Assembly (NCBI RefSeq): GCF_000015865.1
Contig: NC_009012.1
Location: 3,155,081-3,219,080 of the forward strand
Direction: 5' to 3'
From: Acetivibrio thermocellus ATCC 27405
Lineage (GTDB): Bacteria; Bacillota; Clostridia; Acetivibrionales; Acetivibrionaceae
DNA length: 64,000 nucleotides
Shown here: positions 28,102 to 35,447 of the stretch, in pieces
How positions within the stretch are numbered: position 1 is the stretch's first letter
How the letters are laid out: each line of letters opens with the position of its first letter
The notes under the pieces: model-generated
Database searches by the model: none
Told to the model about the DNA's origin: nothing
What the model saw: only the letters and a program-made list of their open reading frames with translations
Program-made: the position numbers and the translations under genes

Positions 28102-29277
28102 ATGGGAATGGACTATAAATTTAACAGGGCATGGGCCGAGGTTAATCTGGACAACATTGCCCATAATGTAAAGGAAATCAGGCGAATTGTTGACAAGAAA
28201 GTTGAGATAATGGGAGTGGTTAAGGCTGACGCATACGGACATGGAGTAATGGAGATTGCCAGAACACTTTTGGAAAACGGTGTTACCCGTCTGGCGGTGT
28301 CCATGCTGGATGAAGCCATACAGCTTCGTCAAAACGGTATTAAGGTTCCGATATTGATATTAAGCTATACCGACCCTGTACGGGCGGAAGAGATTGTTTT
28401 AAACGACGTCACCCAGACGGTTTTCAGCCATGATTTGGCGGAAGCTCTGTCGGAGGCGGCTGTAAAACACCACAGAAATGTAAAGATTCATATCAAGATA
28501 GATACCGGTATGACAAGGGTTGGATTTATGCCCGGTTACAGTGCGGTTAAGAATGTGGTGCAGATAAGCAAGCTGCCGGGCATTATTATTGAAGGATTGT
28601 TTACCCATTTTGCATCGGCGGACGAGGCTGACAAATCCTACACCTATATGCAGTTTGAAAGGTTTATGAGCATAGTCGGCGAACTTAACAGAATAGGGGT
28701 GTATATTCCCGTAAAGCACGTATGCAACAGTGCCGCGTTGATTGAGTTTCCTGAAATGCACCTCAACATGGTAAGGCCGGGTATAGCATTGTACGGATTG
28801 TATCCTTCGGATGAGGTGGATAAAACCAAAATCGACTTAAGACCGGCCATGTCTTTAAAGGCAAATGTGATACTTGTAAAAGATGTGGAAAAGGACACCT
28901 TTATCAGCTACGGAAGAATATTTAAAACGAGCCGGAACAGCAGGATAGCAACTATACCCATAGGATATGCCGACGGATATACAAGGCTTCTTACCGGCAA
29001 AGGAAAAGTACTTCTGAACGGTCAGCTGGCTCCTATTGTGGGAAGAATTTGCATGGATCAGTGCATGGTAGACATAACGGATATTGAAGGAGACGTAAAA
29101 GTCGGAGATGAAGCCGTGCTTATCGGAAAGCAGAAAGATAACGAAATAAAAGTCGAGGACCTGGCAAAAAGTGTTGGGACAATAAATTACGAACTGGTAA
29201 GCATAATAGGAAAGAGAATTCCCAGAGTTTACCTGAAAGAAGGGAAGATATACAATGTATTAAATTATTTGATATAA
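28102..29277 (+). CDS. alr: Alanine racemase
   Basis: 391 residues. The PLP lysine is in VVKADAYGHG (Lys41), and the second catalytic residue is the Tyr of PIGYADGYTR in the C-terminal beta domain. Other conserved blocks are HIKIDTGMTRVGF, GLFTHFASADE, HVCNSAALIEFP, RPGIALYGLYPS and GRICMDQCMVDIT. It converts L-alanine to D-alanine for peptidoglycan in the cytosol. AGAGGG precedes the start. It stands between nnrE/D and mazE-mazF, the order seen in Bacillus (alr-ndoAI-ndoA). Confidence 0.96.
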   Translation: MGMDYKFNRAWAEVNLDNIAHNVKEIRRIVDKKVEIMGVVKADAYGHGVMEIARTLLENGVTRLAVSMLDEAIQLRQNGIKVPILILSYTDPVRAEEIVLNDVTQTVFSHDLAEALSEAAVKHHRNVKIHIKIDTGMTRVGFMPGYSAVKNVVQISKLPGIIIEGLFTHFASADEADKSYTYMQFERFMSIVGELNRIGVYIPVKHVCNSAALIEFPEMHLNMVRPGIALYGLYPSDEVDKTKIDLRPAMSLKANVILVKDVEKDTFISYGRIFKTSRNSRIATIPIGYADGYTRLLTGKGKVLLNGQLAPIVGRICMDQCMVDITDIEGDVKVGDEAVLIGKQKDNEIKVEDLAKSVGTINYELVSIIGKRIPRVYLKEGKIYNVLNYLI

Positions 29278-29432: not shown

Positions 29433-29683
29433 TATAATATGGGGTAAATGACAAAAAAATAATTTTAGAGACAGAATTACTGCAGTGCTGCAGGTAAGCT
29501 CATGGGGGTTCAACCTTTGTTAAGTCTGAAATGATTTTGCCAACAATTACATAGGCGCGCGAAGGCAAGTAATTAAATTTTAATTTGACCCGTGCATATC
29601 TTAGATATTATAATTAATATATATAGTTATAGAATTACTACCTTCGCGATTACCGCTTAACTGTAGAGTAACCTTTGACAAAG
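29433..29683 (+). ncRNA. Candidate structured RNA between alr and mazE
   Basis: The 511-base gap 29278-29788 has no gene but strong folding potential. CGCGAAGG (29548-29555) pairs perfectly with CCTTCGCG (29641-29648). Inside them GTAATT (29559-29564) pairs with AATTAC (29633-29638), and outside GTTAAG (29519-29524) pairs with CTTAAC (29656-29661). A local hairpin TTACTGCAG/CTGCAGGTAA precedes this. TATAAT lies near 29433. I cannot match it to a known RNA family; boundaries are guesses. Confidence 0.35.
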
Positions 29684-29788: not shown

Positions 29789-29965
29789 TTGGCACAATTA
29801 AAGAAAATTTTAATCAGTCTTCCCGACAATTTACTCAAAGAGGTTGATTCCATTGTTGCAATGGAGAAAATTAACAGAAGTGAATTTGTCCGGGAGGCAA
29901 TGAAGCTTTATATACGTGAGAAAAGAAGAATTGAAATGAGGGATAAATTGAAAAAAGGCTATTAG
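29789..29965 (+). CDS. MazE/EndoAI-type antitoxin, N-terminal ribbon-helix-helix part
   Basis: 58 residues from TTG 29789 (GTGGGGG upstream); the track-like longer start at 29774 is inside the ribosome binding site. [37 protein letters not shown] is a ribbon-helix-helix DNA-binding domain. The frame ends in KGY followed by TAG. In the Bacillus homologue EndoAI, as I recall it, the same point reads RGYMEMAKINL and continues into the toxin-binding tail. Here that tail continues in the same frame after the TAG (see next entry), so this is probably a truncated or split antitoxin able to bind DNA but missing the toxin-neutralising part. Confidence 0.8.
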
Positions 29966-29968
29966 CAA

Positions 29969-30076
29969 ATGGCTGAAATTAATATTAAACTTGCAGAAAT
30001 CTGTTTTGAAGCAGATAATGATCAACAGCAAAAATATGAGGAAAGTCTCAGGGAGTTGGAAGAGAGTGGTAATTAA
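29969..30076 (+). CDS. C-terminal, toxin-binding half of the MazE antitoxin as a separate ORF
   Basis: A 35-codon frame, in phase with the upstream antitoxin and separated from it only by TAG-CAA. It begins ATG-GCT and reads [17 protein letters not shown] at its start, which aligns with MAKINLNISSEAH in Bacillus EndoAI. It ends with TAA at 30074-30076, overlapping the mazF GTG by 11 bases, as an intact antitoxin gene would. It could be translated by reinitiation three bases after the TAG, by stop-codon read-through, or not at all if the antitoxin is a pseudogene. Confidence 0.65.
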
Positions 30077-30416
30077 ACGCGGAGATATATTCTATGCTGA
30101 TTTAAGTCCTGTCATTGGGTCAGAACAGGGTGGAATCAGACCTGTGCTTATTGTTCAGAATGATATTGGCAACAAATACAGTCCTACGGTTATAGCATCG
30201 GCTATAACATCCCAGATAAACAAAGCAAAGCTGCCCACACACATCGAATTGAGCGCAAAGGAGTACGGACTTCCGAAAGATTCGGTGGTGCTGCTGGAGC
30301 AGATACGAACCATTGACAAAAAGAGACTCAGAGAGAAAATAGGGCATCTTGATGACGAACTTATGGAAAAGGTTAATGAAGCACTTTCAATAAGTTTTGG
30401 ATTAATAGATATGTAA
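30066..30416 (+). CDS. mazF: MazF/EndoA-type mRNA interferase toxin
   Basis: 116 residues starting at GTG 30066, the same length and N-terminus ([14 protein letters not shown]) as Bacillus EndoA; a longer open frame from 29991 overlaps the antitoxin tail and is rejected. Catalytic-site features are present: [19 protein letters not shown] (the conserved Arg in GGIRP) and the [16 protein letters not shown] strand with the conserved Thr/Ser, plus [11 protein letters not shown]. EndoA cleaves single-stranded RNA at U^ACAU. All residues look intact, so the toxin is probably active and must be neutralised. Confidence 0.93.
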
Positions 30417-31978: not shown

Positions 31979-34216
31979 TTAAAGAGGTTTTTCATCAATC
32001 ATTTCAATTGCAATTTTAGCGTTCTCAAGAGCCTTGTCTTTAAGAACCGCAGTGTTTTTTTCCAGCTCTTTTTTTATGGCTTCCCTGTTTTCCCAGGTTT
32101 CATCCACTATTTTTTTCATATGTTCCAGTTCCAGGGAGTTTACATGTCCCGCCGATGCCTGGTTGATATACTGCATAAAACCTTCAACCTTGGGTTCGTA
32201 CACCATTCCCACCACGGGTATTCCGAGGCTTGCGGCAAAAATAAGAGCATGAAGGCGCATTCCGATAAGCATTTGAGTTTTGCCGATTATTCCAAGCATT
32301 TCTGAAACAGTAGGTTTATTGGTTATTACAAAGCTTTTGTTTTTCATTTTCGAAGTTATATTTTGAATTATTGCAAGGTCTTCCGGATAGTGCATTGCTA
32401 TAAAAAGGGGTTTCATACCGTATTTTTCGACTATATAATCCGCAAGTTCCGCAATTGTGGTCTCATATTTTTCATGTTCGCCCCATTTTCTCACGGATAT
32501 GCCGACAAGTTGTTCGTTCGGGTCAATTCCCTCATCTATGAGAAGCTGATTTACACGCTCGATTTTTTCGGGTATTATGGTAAAAGCCGGGTCGGCAGTT
32601 ACCTTAATCCTGGGACTTTGAATTTTAAGATTGTTTAATTCTTCATAGGACAACTTTTCTCTCAAAGTGATGACATCCACCCGGTTTACAATTTTCTTTG
32701 TAAGCTTCCGGTTTTTTTCCTTGTTCAAAGGCCCTATGCCGTTGGCGTAAATCATCACCTTCATACCCATTTTTTTTGCAAGCCAGATCATTCCGAGATA
32801 ATATATAAGGGAACGGGTACTGGTGTTGTCCTGAATCAGGCTTCCTCCTCCGTTTATAAAAAGTTTTGAATTCCTCATGATGAGAAGGATTTTAAGGAGG
32901 TTGAACCTGTTTATTGAATCAACATTATATACAAGTCCTGTTTCCAAGGGATTTCTGGACAGGACCAAAATTCTTAAATCTCTTCGATACATGCGAAGAT
33001 TGTCAATTATAGCCATAAGCATGGCGTCATCTCCGATGTTTTTAAAGCCGTAATAACCTGAGATAATTGCATCGTAGCGATATTTGGACCTGCTGTTTCT
33101 AAAACTCCGAAGAAGAATTGTTTCATATATGTCAAGCTGTGTTTTGCACATATTGTCCAAAGAAAAGTGCGAACTGGCCTTTTCATGAATTTTTTCCCCC
33201 ATTTTTTTTCTCAGTGCGGGGTCATTTATGAGGGTCAATATGTGGCCGGCCAAAGTTTCGTAATCTCCCGGCTCAAAGAGAAAACCATTTATTCCGCTTT
33301 CAATAAGGTCTGAAATGCCTCCCACATTGCTGCTTATAGTGGCTTTTTTCAGCAGAGAGCCTTCAAGGATTGCATAGGGAAAACTTTCGCTCAGCGAAGT
33401 AAGAGTGTTTATGTCTATAGAGTTTAAAAAATCGTAAGGTTTGTTTACGAAACCTAAAAAGAAAACGTTGTTCTGAAGACCGTAGGATGCGGCCTTTTTT
33501 TCGAGGGATTTTCGCTCGGGTCCGTCTCCTGCTATCAAAAACCTTGCCGTCGGATTGGTTTTAATGACGGCATTTGCAGCCTTAAGGAATGTATCCAGGC
33601 CTTTTACAGGGTCAAGACGGGCCAGTATTCCGATTATGACATCGTTTTCCCCAAATTTCAGGTTGTATTTTTTTAAAAACTCCTCTTTTGGCAAAGGATT
33701 AATTTCCTGGTTGAAATTAATGCCATTGTAAACGGTAAATATGTTTTGAGGACTGAACTTTCTTTCAATAAGCATTGTCTTGAAGTTTTTGGAAACGGCT
33801 ATATGAAAGTCAATGAATCTCAATGAAACCATGTTTATAAGGCCGAAGGAGAACATTTTAAAGATATTTTGCAAATAATCAAGCCTGTAGTCGCTGTGAA
33901 CTGTAGTAACCACGGGAAGCCCGGTAAGCCTTTTTACCAAAACGGCAATCATGTTGGCTTTTGCACCATGGGAATGAATAAGCTCGTACCCTTCCTCCCT
34001 TACAATTCTTAAAACTTTACGCACATCAGAAAAAATGGTGCCTGTATTTACAACTTCCACGTTTATACCCATTGCACGGGCGTCATCGGCAAAAGCACCT
34101 GTCCTGAAACTTATAAGTTTTACATTTATATGTTTGCCAAGTTCCCTGACCAGAGAGAGAACATGGCTTTTTGCTCCGCCAACGTCTCCTCCGCCTATTA
34201 AATGAAGAACTTTCAT
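31979..34216 (-). CDS. csaB: Fused GT4 glycosyltransferase and CsaB polysaccharide pyruvyl transferase
   Basis: 745 residues from ATG 34216 (GGAGAG upstream). Residues 1-370 are a GT4 glycosyltransferase (HLIGGGDVGGAKSHVLSL, LIHSHGAKANM, GILARLDPVKG, FLIAGDGPE, SLSESFPYAILEG). Residues 385-745 are CsaB-like (ISGYYGFKNIGDDAMLMAI, LFINGGGSLIQDNTSTRSLIYYLG, ANGIGPLNKEKNR, GMRLHALIFAASLGIPVVGMVYEPKV). CsaB adds ketal-pyruvate from PEP to the secondary wall polymer that S-layer-homology domains bind. An in-frame extension of 116 codons upstream lacks a ribosome binding site and is rejected. The fusion couples sugar transfer and pyruvylation in one chain. Confidence 0.92.
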   Translation of the reverse strand: MKVLHLIGGGDVGGAKSHVLSLVRELGKHINVKLISFRTGAFADDARAMGINVEVVNTGTIFSDVRKVLRIVREEGYELIHSHGAKANMIAVLVKRLTGLPVVTTVHSDYRLDYLQNIFKMFSFGLINMVSLRFIDFHIAVSKNFKTMLIERKFSPQNIFTVYNGINFNQEINPLPKEEFLKKYNLKFGENDVIIGILARLDPVKGLDTFLKAANAVIKTNPTARFLIAGDGPERKSLEKKAASYGLQNNVFFLGFVNKPYDFLNSIDINTLTSLSESFPYAILEGSLLKKATISSNVGGISDLIESGINGFLFEPGDYETLAGHILTLINDPALRKKMGEKIHEKASSHFSLDNMCKTQLDIYETILLRSFRNSRSKYRYDAIISGYYGFKNIGDDAMLMAIIDNLRMYRRDLRILVLSRNPLETGLVYNVDSINRFNLLKILLIMRNSKLFINGGGSLIQDNTSTRSLIYYLGMIWLAKKMGMKVMIYANGIGPLNKEKNRKLTKKIVNRVDVITLREKLSYEELNNLKIQSPRIKVTADPAFTIIPEKIERVNQLLIDEGIDPNEQLVGISVRKWGEHEKYETTIAELADYIVEKYGMKPLFIAMHYPEDLAIIQNITSKMKNKSFVITNKPTVSEMLGIIGKTQMLIGMRLHALIFAASLGIPVVGMVYEPKVEGFMQYINQASAGHVNSLELEHMKKIVDETWENREAIKKELEKNTAVLKDKALENAKIAIEMIDEKPL

Positions 34217-34541
34217 GAGTACTCTCCTTAGGAAAAAGTCTTTTTGTTTTATTATTAATTTTAATTTTAAAAGTTTTATATTAAAATGTTGGTAGAAAAC
34301 GTTAATAAACCCGGCCTCATCGGTTAAATTCAGCCAATTATATGTCCAACCCATTATAGCATATAATTCATTGAAAAAGAAAGTGTGTGTCATAATATAA
34401 TTTTGCATATTTGTCGGTACTTTTAAACGTAAGAGATAAGTAAACCTGCCGCGGGTTAAAAAATATGGGTTGAAGTTGACTTTTGTGGGTAAGATAAAAG
34501 TAGTGAACGTTTCTTTTAATATTACGGGTTGAGGTAAAAAA
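34217..34541. other. Divergent intergenic region, csaB fusion / yitT
   Basis: 325 AT-rich bases between divergent genes. I see no RNA or repeat. A possible -35 (TTGACT at 34479-34484) lacks a good -10 at normal spacing. Confidence 0.5.
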
Positions 34542-35447
34542 ATGAAGGGTGTAAAAGTGCGCATAACAGAACTGAAGGATTATTTGCTGATAACAGTAGG
34601 TTCATTCATTACGGCAATATCAATCAATGTTTTTATGGTTCCCTACAAAATTGCGCCCGGAGGTATAAGCGGAGTAGCCACCGTGATTTACTACCTTAGC
34701 GACGAAAAAGTTCCTGTGGGTACTGCAATGCTTATTTTAAACATACCTTTATTTTTGATGGGCATTAAACTCATAGGAAAGAAATTCATTATAAAGACAC
34801 TCTACGGGACCGCCCTTCTTTCTGTGTTAATAGACGCAATGCAGCCGTTTACGGATTACTTTGTGGAAAACTATCTTGCAAGCACCGAGAGTCACCGGTA
34901 TACACCGGATATTTTGCTGTATTCGATATTCGGCGGTTTGCTTATGGGAATGGGATTGGGCCTGGTGTTCAGATCCGGGGCGACAACCGGCGGAACGGAT
35001 CTTGCGGCGAGAATAGTAAATCACGTTGTACCGGCATTTACAATAGGTCAGACATTATTGTTTATAGATACCAGCATAATAGTATTTGCAGCTTTCGTAT
35101 TTAAAAGTGTTCAGCTTGCACTTTACGCCATGGTTACGTTGTACATCAGCTCAAAAGTGATTGATGCGATTTTGGAGGGAGTAAATTTTGCCAAAGCCCT
35201 TTTAATCATATCGGACTATCCGGAGGAAATAGCCTCAACCATTTTAAGAGATTTGGACAGGGGGGTGACAGCACTTAAAGGAAAGGGTATGTTTACAGGA
35301 AGCGACAAGGAAGTTCTTTTCTGTGTGGTTCAGAGAAGACAGATTCCGATGGTAAAAAAAATTGTTCGACAAATTGACAAAAAAGCTTTCATTGTACTTA
35401 CGGATATAAGGGAGGTTTTGGGAGAAGGCTTTAAAACTTATGAATAA
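34542..35447 (+). CDS. YitT/DUF161 family membrane protein with DUF2179 domain
   Basis: 301 residues. Five to six helices over about 12-205 (LLITVGSFITAISINVFMVPYKIAPGGISGVATVIYY is the characteristic start; GATTGGTDLAARIV is conserved) are followed by a cytosolic DUF2179 domain (about 220-298, ALLIISDYPEEIASTILRDLDRGVTALKGKGMFTG). These proteins are widespread and numerous in Firmicutes; function is not established. The upstream sequence has no strong SD. Monocistronic. Confidence 0.9.
   Translation: MKGVKVRITELKDYLLITVGSFITAISINVFMVPYKIAPGGISGVATVIYYLSDEKVPVGTAMLILNIPLFLMGIKLIGKKFIIKTLYGTALLSVLIDAMQPFTDYFVENYLASTESHRYTPDILLYSIFGGLLMGMGLGLVFRSGATTGGTDLAARIVNHVVPAFTIGQTLLFIDTSIIVFAAFVFKSVQLALYAMVTLYISSKVIDAILEGVNFAKALLIISDYPEEIASTILRDLDRGVTALKGKGMFTGSDKEVLFCVVQRRQIPMVKKIVRQIDKKAFIVLTDIREVLGEGFKTYE

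What the first reader, a model, noticed from the sequence alone, without database searches (positions are those of the whole stretch)
29789..30416. MazE antitoxin split by an in-frame TAG while MazF is intact
The antitoxin frame ends at a TAG (29963-29965) at exactly the point where Bacillus EndoAI, as I recall it, continues into its toxin-binding tail. That tail is present here in the same frame after the stop, beginning at an ATG three bases on and ending in the usual overlap with mazF. An active toxin with a DNA-binding half and a toxin-binding half on separate peptides would be a new arrangement: reinitiation, TAG read-through, or a decaying antitoxin tolerated by other means.
Basis: partly seen in the sequence, partly recalled or inferred. 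Interest (0 to 1): 0.7.

Follow-up and report, generated by a model that had tools for sequence, protein, structure and literature searches.

The report
Antitoxin split by one stop codon
In a heat-loving, cellulose-degrading bacterium the antitoxin of a common toxin-antitoxin pair is cut by a stop codon exactly between its DNA-binding half and its toxin-binding half while the toxin gene is intact, and in some relatives the toxin-binding half is all of the antitoxin that can be recognised.

Summary
In what appears to be Acetivibrio thermocellus, mazE is split by TAG 29963-29965 into a 58-residue ribbon-helix-helix (RHH) piece and a 35-residue tail ORF starting at ATG 29969; mazF (30066-30416) is intact. 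Of 56 MazE-bearing genomes of the order, 55 have a sense codon at the site, so the stop is private to this genome in the sample; other strains could not be read. The tail begins at the equivalent of EndoAI Met64, where the toxin-contacting segment starts; the corresponding S. aureus MazE peptide binds MazF (PMC4041440). Of 110 loci, 18 have a recognisable tail without a recognisable RHH, five of them in frames too short to hold one. Most likely: a recent nonsense mutation, tolerated because the tail is made by reinitiation 3 nt downstream and still restrains MazF. Read-through is unlikely: none of the 56 tRNA genes found reads UAG. Short MazE and tripartite systems are known; an RHH half and a toxin-binding half as separate adjacent ORFs was seen in no other locus surveyed. 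Translation of the tail is inferred, not shown.

The parts
28102..29277 (+). alr homologue (alanine racemase; name recalled, no family search run), the usual upstream neighbour of this mazEF locus
   Evidence: ORF; a homologue found upstream of mazF on the same strand in 83 of 110 loci, the window included
29585..29614 (+). sigma-70-like promoter candidate (TTGACC-18-TATAAT, 11 of 12) for mazE-mazF
   Evidence: 9 such sites in the region against 6.4 expected in shuffles, so weak alone; overlaps a block 95% identical to L032 and L008 between less conserved stretches
29789..29965 (+). mazE N-piece, TTG start, 58 residues, ribbon-helix-helix domain, ends at TAG
29963..29965 (+). in-frame TAG; sampled relatives have a sense codon here
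29969..30076 (+). tail ORF, ATG start 3 nt after the TAG, 35 residues, toxin-binding segment of MazE
   Evidence: equivalence to EndoAI Met64-Glu83 rests on passages of PMC4041440
30066..30416 (+). mazF (EndoA/PemK family), GTG start, 116 residues, intact; overlaps the tail ORF by 11 nt

Best explanation
A recent nonsense mutation has divided the EndoAI-type MazE of this lineage at the junction of its two domains. Ribosomes make the RHH piece, stop at the TAG, and a share of them restart at the ATG 3 nt downstream to make the 35-residue tail, which is the segment that binds MazF. The tail ORF overlaps mazF, so toxin made by coupled translation comes with antitoxin peptide. The RHH piece can no longer be tied to toxin level and at most acts as a plain repressor. 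Shown: the sequence, the place of the stop, intact mazF, privacy of the stop among sampled species, no UAG-reading tRNA among 56 found, and other lineages whose MazE has no recognisable RHH. Inferred: that the tail is translated, that it is enough to restrain MazF, and that the RHH piece folds and binds DNA.
For: Place of the stop: the tail starts at the residue equivalent to EndoAI Met64 (profile matches 4me7_E from chain residue 65), the first residue of the toxin-contacting segment; the S. aureus MazE 23-56 peptide binds its MazF in NMR titration (PMC4041440 passages). Gap: 3 nt; in E. coli a 2-nt gap lowered reinitiation by 5, 20 and 70% for three gene pairs relative to the native overlap (PMC10666635 section 6). 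Relatives: 18 of 110 loci have a recognisable tail but no recognisable RHH, next to a MazF of 113-117 residues, five of them in stop-to-stop frames of 57-64 codons, too short for both; 10 of the 18 were put to Pfam and gave no RHH family; alr was found upstream in 15 of the 18. mazF: 41 synonymous against 2 nonsynonymous base differences from A. straminisolvens over 110 codons; N-piece 4 against 0 over 58. Of the 43 codons of the mazE frame that are a stop or one step from one, 3 lie directly before this Met. Kis-Kid translation is coupled (PMC3920265 passage).
Against: The tail ATG has only a weak Shine-Dalgarno match (-3.4 kcal/mol; 114 of 394 internal in-frame ATGs in the window are as strong), and mazF has a good one of its own (-7.5), so toxin could be made without the tail. 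The authors of PMC10666635 conclude that coupling needs overlaps or very short gaps (abstract); there is no overlap here. In the tail, window and A. straminisolvens differ at 3 synonymous and 4 nonsynonymous bases over 28 codons, which leans to relaxed constraint, though the counts are tiny. For the S. aureus peptide the passages show binding with, in the authors' words, limited statistical reliability; inhibition was shown for SaMazE, not for the peptide. The 3-in-43 argument is weak (7%), and weaker still (7 in 43) if stops just before an earlier in-frame ATG also spare a tail. No expression or proteomic data for this locus were seen.
Confidence: 0.55

Rival explanations
1. Plain decay: the tail is not made in useful amounts, MazE is a pseudogene, and MazF is tolerated because it is poorly expressed (fewer ribosomes reach it after the TAG) or not very toxic in this host.
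For: 17 of 110 loci gave no recognisable MazE beside a full-length MazF, 8 of them with alr upstream, although L046 is masked there and L066 and L068 probably hold diverged tails; a review passage discusses, as disputed, a MazF (MazF-mx; Myxococcus is recalled) said to function without an antitoxin partner (PMC4803016). Weak Shine-Dalgarno at the tail ATG; 4 nonsynonymous against 3 synonymous differences in the tail.
Against: mazF shows 2 nonsynonymous against 41 synonymous differences and no lesion, and keeps its own good Shine-Dalgarno match; the stop sits at a place that spares the tail. The event may be too young for decay to show.
Confidence: 0.22
2. Sequencing error in the reference, or a variant private to one laboratory stock.
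For: Private to this genome among 56 order genomes and among the listed rows of a class-wide search (list cut off). No second strain of the species could be read here.
Against: Single-contig genome, 100% complete. A paper that resequenced wild-type ATCC 27405 reports 20 putative differences from the reference common to all its samples (PMC3804516 passage); whether this base is among them could not be looked up. That this genome is ATCC 27405 is recalled from its size.
Confidence: 0.15
3. Programmed or leaky UAG read-through gives enough full-length MazE.
For: The frame is open on both sides and the halves are well conserved.
Against: No tRNA with a CUA anticodon among the 56 tRNA genes found (the search scored 150 of 236 candidates); TAG ends 5 of 37 long ORFs in the window, so it appears to be a working stop; none of the other 55 order genomes has the TAG.
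Confidence: 0.06

Closest known systems
Bacillus subtilis EndoAI-EndoA (YdcD-YdcE, MazEF; PDB 4ME7)
   Same: RHH piece, tail (as a profile) and toxin match its chains; antitoxin gene just upstream of the toxin gene (order in B. subtilis recalled)
   Different: EndoAI is one chain (94 residues in 4me7_E); here the chain is cut between the RHH domain and the toxin-binding segment
Staphylococcus aureus SaMazE-SaMazF
   Same: An unusually short MazE; its residues 23-56 correspond to EndoAI Met64-Glu83 and bind MazF (PMC4041440, introduction read in full and 12 of 18 passages)
   Different: SaMazE is a stand-alone short antitoxin, said not to be autoregulated; here an RHH ORF still precedes the tail in the same frame. 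SaMazE itself was not aligned here
Tripartite TA systems (omega-epsilon-zeta, PaaR-PaaA-ParE)
   Same: Regulator, antitoxin and toxin on three polypeptides (PMC4803016 passages)
   Different: Other protein families; here the three-part layout comes from one stop codon and was seen in one genome only

Membership tests
MazF/EndoA (PemK) toxin | PemK_toxin domain over the curated cut-off, full length | tested here: met
   134.9 bits against 23.1, profile 1-109 of 109
MazF/EndoA (PemK) toxin | conserved catalytic Arg and Thr (roles and numbers R25, T48 recalled) | tested here: met
   both simple motifs present in the window protein
MazF/EndoA (PemK) toxin | RNase activity and toxicity | not testable with these tools
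   needs an assay
EndoAI-type MazE antitoxin | RHH DNA-binding domain | tested here: met
   PF01402 33.6 bits against 20.5
EndoAI-type MazE antitoxin | RHH and toxin-binding tail in one open frame | tested here: not met
   TAG at 29963-29965
EndoAI-type MazE antitoxin | directly upstream of mazF | tested here: met
   tail ORF overlaps mazF by 11 nt
Short (SaMazE-like) MazE antitoxin | ORF with the toxin-binding segment but no RHH | tested here: met
   tail ORF 29969-30076, no Pfam family; tail profile matches 4me7_E 65-94
Short (SaMazE-like) MazE antitoxin | the short ORF is translated and neutralises MazF | not testable with these tools
   no expression data seen
Tripartite TA system | separate regulator, antitoxin and toxin ORFs | tested here: met
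   three ORFs 29789-29965, 29969-30076, 30066-30416
Tripartite TA system | layout shared by relatives | tested here: not met
   1 of 56 order genomes
Tripartite TA system | the separate regulator binds the operon's promoter | not testable with these tools
   needs an assay

The most novel reading that the evidence does not exclude
A one-base change has turned a classical RHH-MazE/MazF module into a working three-part system (free RHH repressor, 35-residue antitoxin peptide, MazF) held together by termination-reinitiation: a snapshot of the first step by which Clostridia repeatedly shed the DNA-binding domain of MazE at the alr-mazF locus.
Probability: 0.25. Interest if true: 0.65.

Novelty: new variant of a known kind. 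Interest (0 to 1): 0.42.

Why it matters
It offers a natural test of whether the short toxin-binding peptide alone can hold an intact MazF in check, and of what the DNA-binding half of a type II antitoxin is for. With the RHH-less MazE loci found here, it suggests that autoregulation through MazE is dispensable at this locus and has been lost more than once, while MazF itself is kept.

Tried and rejected
Second MazE elsewhere in the genome: none found. A second PemK-family ORF at G000:C1:2967819 (35.8 bits) lies beside a 211-residue ORF that looks unlike MazE by eye (no family search run), so it is no obvious source of antitoxin.

Suppressor tRNA: none of the 56 tRNA genes found reads UAG. Of the 52 tRNA loci held (L159-L210), 43 were given to ARAGORN; the tRNAs of the 9 left out lie inside loci that were given, and each of the 56 places has an anticodon.

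Stops in other MazE genes: one search reports one stop inside the match for 16 order genomes besides the window; none of them is at or before the site, and each has 32 codons from the site to the next stop, so they are the ends of MazE. In one search the regular expression missed 2 of 56 rows (L148, L151), whose printed sequence shows an open GYEEM.

Structured RNA at the junction: two chance-level matches. Own promoter for the tail: no promoter-like site between 29615 and 30312 on the + strand in the scan.

Papers. This locus in A. thermocellus: nothing recognised in the listings (15 rows; 5 rows; 0 rows; 3 rows); passages of PMC8457756 (12 of 14 places, another TA pair, strain DSM 1313), PMC8303734 (12 of 31 places) and PMC3804516 (6 of 6 places) do not mention it. 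A split MazE in print: not recognised in the rows listed (20 of 190, 20 of 89, 12 of 40, 12 of 26, 8 of 10); this is no proof of absence. Supplements could not be read.

Script faults: the first MazE motif missed 62 of 111 loci and was replaced by a profile search; one search read L004 on the wrong strand and was redone; the motif check was too narrow and was redone.

Full report
What is there. The window lies in a single-contig genome of 3,843,301 bases; from this size, recalled, and from the nearest named relative (A. straminisolvens, L032) I take it as Acetivibrio thermocellus ATCC 27405. The locus reads alr (name recalled), then mazE in two pieces, then mazF. The N-piece runs from TTG 29789 to TAG 29963-29965 and encodes 58 residues with an RHH domain. 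After one codon (CAA) an ATG at 29969 opens a 35-residue ORF whose stop ends at 30076, 11 nt inside mazF (GTG 30066 to 30416). MazF is full length and closest to EndoA among solved structures.

Is the stop shared? A relative's intact MazE was searched in 58 genomes of the order, the window's included: 56 match. Reading the site in those 56 gave a sense codon in 55 and TAG only in the window (two of the 55 read by eye from the printed row). A search with the 46 residues around the site in 391 genomes of the class matched 154; in the listed rows (the list is cut off) only the window reports a stop. Each species is represented by one genome, so other strains of this species remain unread.

How old is it? 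Against A. straminisolvens (L032) the N-piece differs by 4 synonymous and 0 nonsynonymous bases over 58 codons, the tail by 3 and 4 over 28, mazF by 41 and 2 over 110. So the toxin has kept its protein sequence, the N-piece is unchanged as a protein, and no other lesion was seen. The tail counts lean to relaxed constraint but are too small to weigh.

Why the place matters. A profile of 18 tails, the window's among them, matches EndoAI chain 4me7_E at residues 65-94, E 2.9e-7, from the first residue. The S. aureus MazF paper places the toxin contact of EndoAI at Met64-Glu83, says that this corresponds to the S. aureus MazE 23-56 peptide, and reports NMR titration of MazF with this peptide, with limited statistical reliability in the authors' words (PMC4041440, passages and introduction). 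The offset of one between Met64 and chain residue 65 I read as an extra residue at the start of the chain; this is inference. So the tail ORF begins where the toxin-binding segment begins. Of the 43 codons of the mazE frame that are a stop or one step from one, 3 lie directly before that Met; 4 more lie just before an earlier in-frame ATG.

Can the tail be made? The gap is 3 nt. In E. coli, widening three overlapping gene pairs to a 2-nt gap lowered reinitiation by 5, 20 and 70%; the authors conclude that coupling needs overlaps or very short gaps (PMC10666635, abstract and section 6). The ATG's own Shine-Dalgarno match is weak (-3.4 kcal/mol, reached by 114 of 394 internal ATGs), while the N-piece (-9.1) and mazF (-7.5) have good ones (the gene-start background there takes the best of the first 25 codons and so flatters gene starts). 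Kis-Kid translation is coupled (PMC3920265 passage). Read-through has no support: none of the 56 tRNA genes found has a CUA anticodon, and TAG ends 5 of 37 long ORFs in the window.

What relatives show. In 110 loci around MazF homologues (L002-L111; L001 repeats L002) I scored the RHH part and the tail part apart, up to 1.5 kb upstream, in six frames. Result: 74 with both, 18 with a tail and no recognisable RHH, 17 with neither, and the window. Five of the 18 (L037, L048, L049, L052, L064) have stop-to-stop frames of 57-64 codons, with no room for an RHH. Ten of the 18 were put to Pfam and gave no RHH family. alr was found upstream in 15 of the 18. The MazF motif EQGGxRP is kept in 110 of 110, the Thr motif in 103 of 110. 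On a MazF tree (109 rows, L046 left out; few columns, 6 of 102 inner branches well supported and 55 forks open) the tail-only label needs 9 changes, of which well-supported branches force at least 2. Caveats: L046 counts as 'neither' only because its upstream is masked; L066 and L068 hold probable but sub-threshold tails; some species occur twice from two collections (L003 and L032, L023 and L033 have identical MazF); many of the 18 are metagenome-assembled; some have longer N-parts that may be diverged RHH (L059 at E 0.06).

Reading. The toxin-binding tail is the part of MazE that is kept in these lineages, and the RHH domain appears dispensable at this locus. The window looks like a very young case: one stop codon at the domain junction, an ATG just behind it, toxin intact. 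I put 0.55 on a working tail made by reinitiation, 0.22 on decay with tolerated MazF, 0.15 on error or a private stock variant, 0.06 on read-through.

Known or new. Short MazE antitoxins are known in Staphylococcus and tripartite TA systems are known (PMC4041440, PMC4803016). RHH half and tail as two adjacent ORFs before mazF were seen in no other locus surveyed here. Hence a new variant of a known kind, seen in one genome.

Noticed in passing
L037:3837-3995, L048:3050-3202, L049:3839-3994, L052:3839-3994, L064:3840-4001: MazE ORFs of 51-54 residues with the tail only, directly upstream of an intact MazF near alr in Clostridia; no recognisable RHH in the ORF or 1.5 kb upstream.
   Followed up: yes
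L084, L086, L087, L089, L095, L097, L106, L108: MazF full length with alr 141-204 nt upstream and no recognisable MazE between them: apparent solitary MazF.
   Followed up: partly
window 29789-29962 against 30066-30416: The N-half of mazE is almost identical in DNA between the window and two same-genus relatives (L032, L008: 4 and 7 synonymous differences over 58 codons) while mazF has 41 and 45 over 110: nucleotide-level constraint or recombination, unexplained.
   Followed up: partly
window 29589-29648: Block 95% identical in L032 and L008 (75-78% in three others) in an otherwise less conserved upstream region; overlaps a promoter-like site 29585-29614.
   Followed up: partly
G000:C1:2967819-2968085 (L123:1372-1803): Second PemK-family ORF in the genome (35.8 bits, over the cut-off), overlapping the end of a 211-residue ORF with no evident likeness to MazE.
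   Followed up: partly
window 31979-34564, minus strand: One 861-residue ORF that reads by eye like a glycosyltransferase followed by a polysaccharide pyruvyl transferase; possible fusion, not tested.
   Followed up: no
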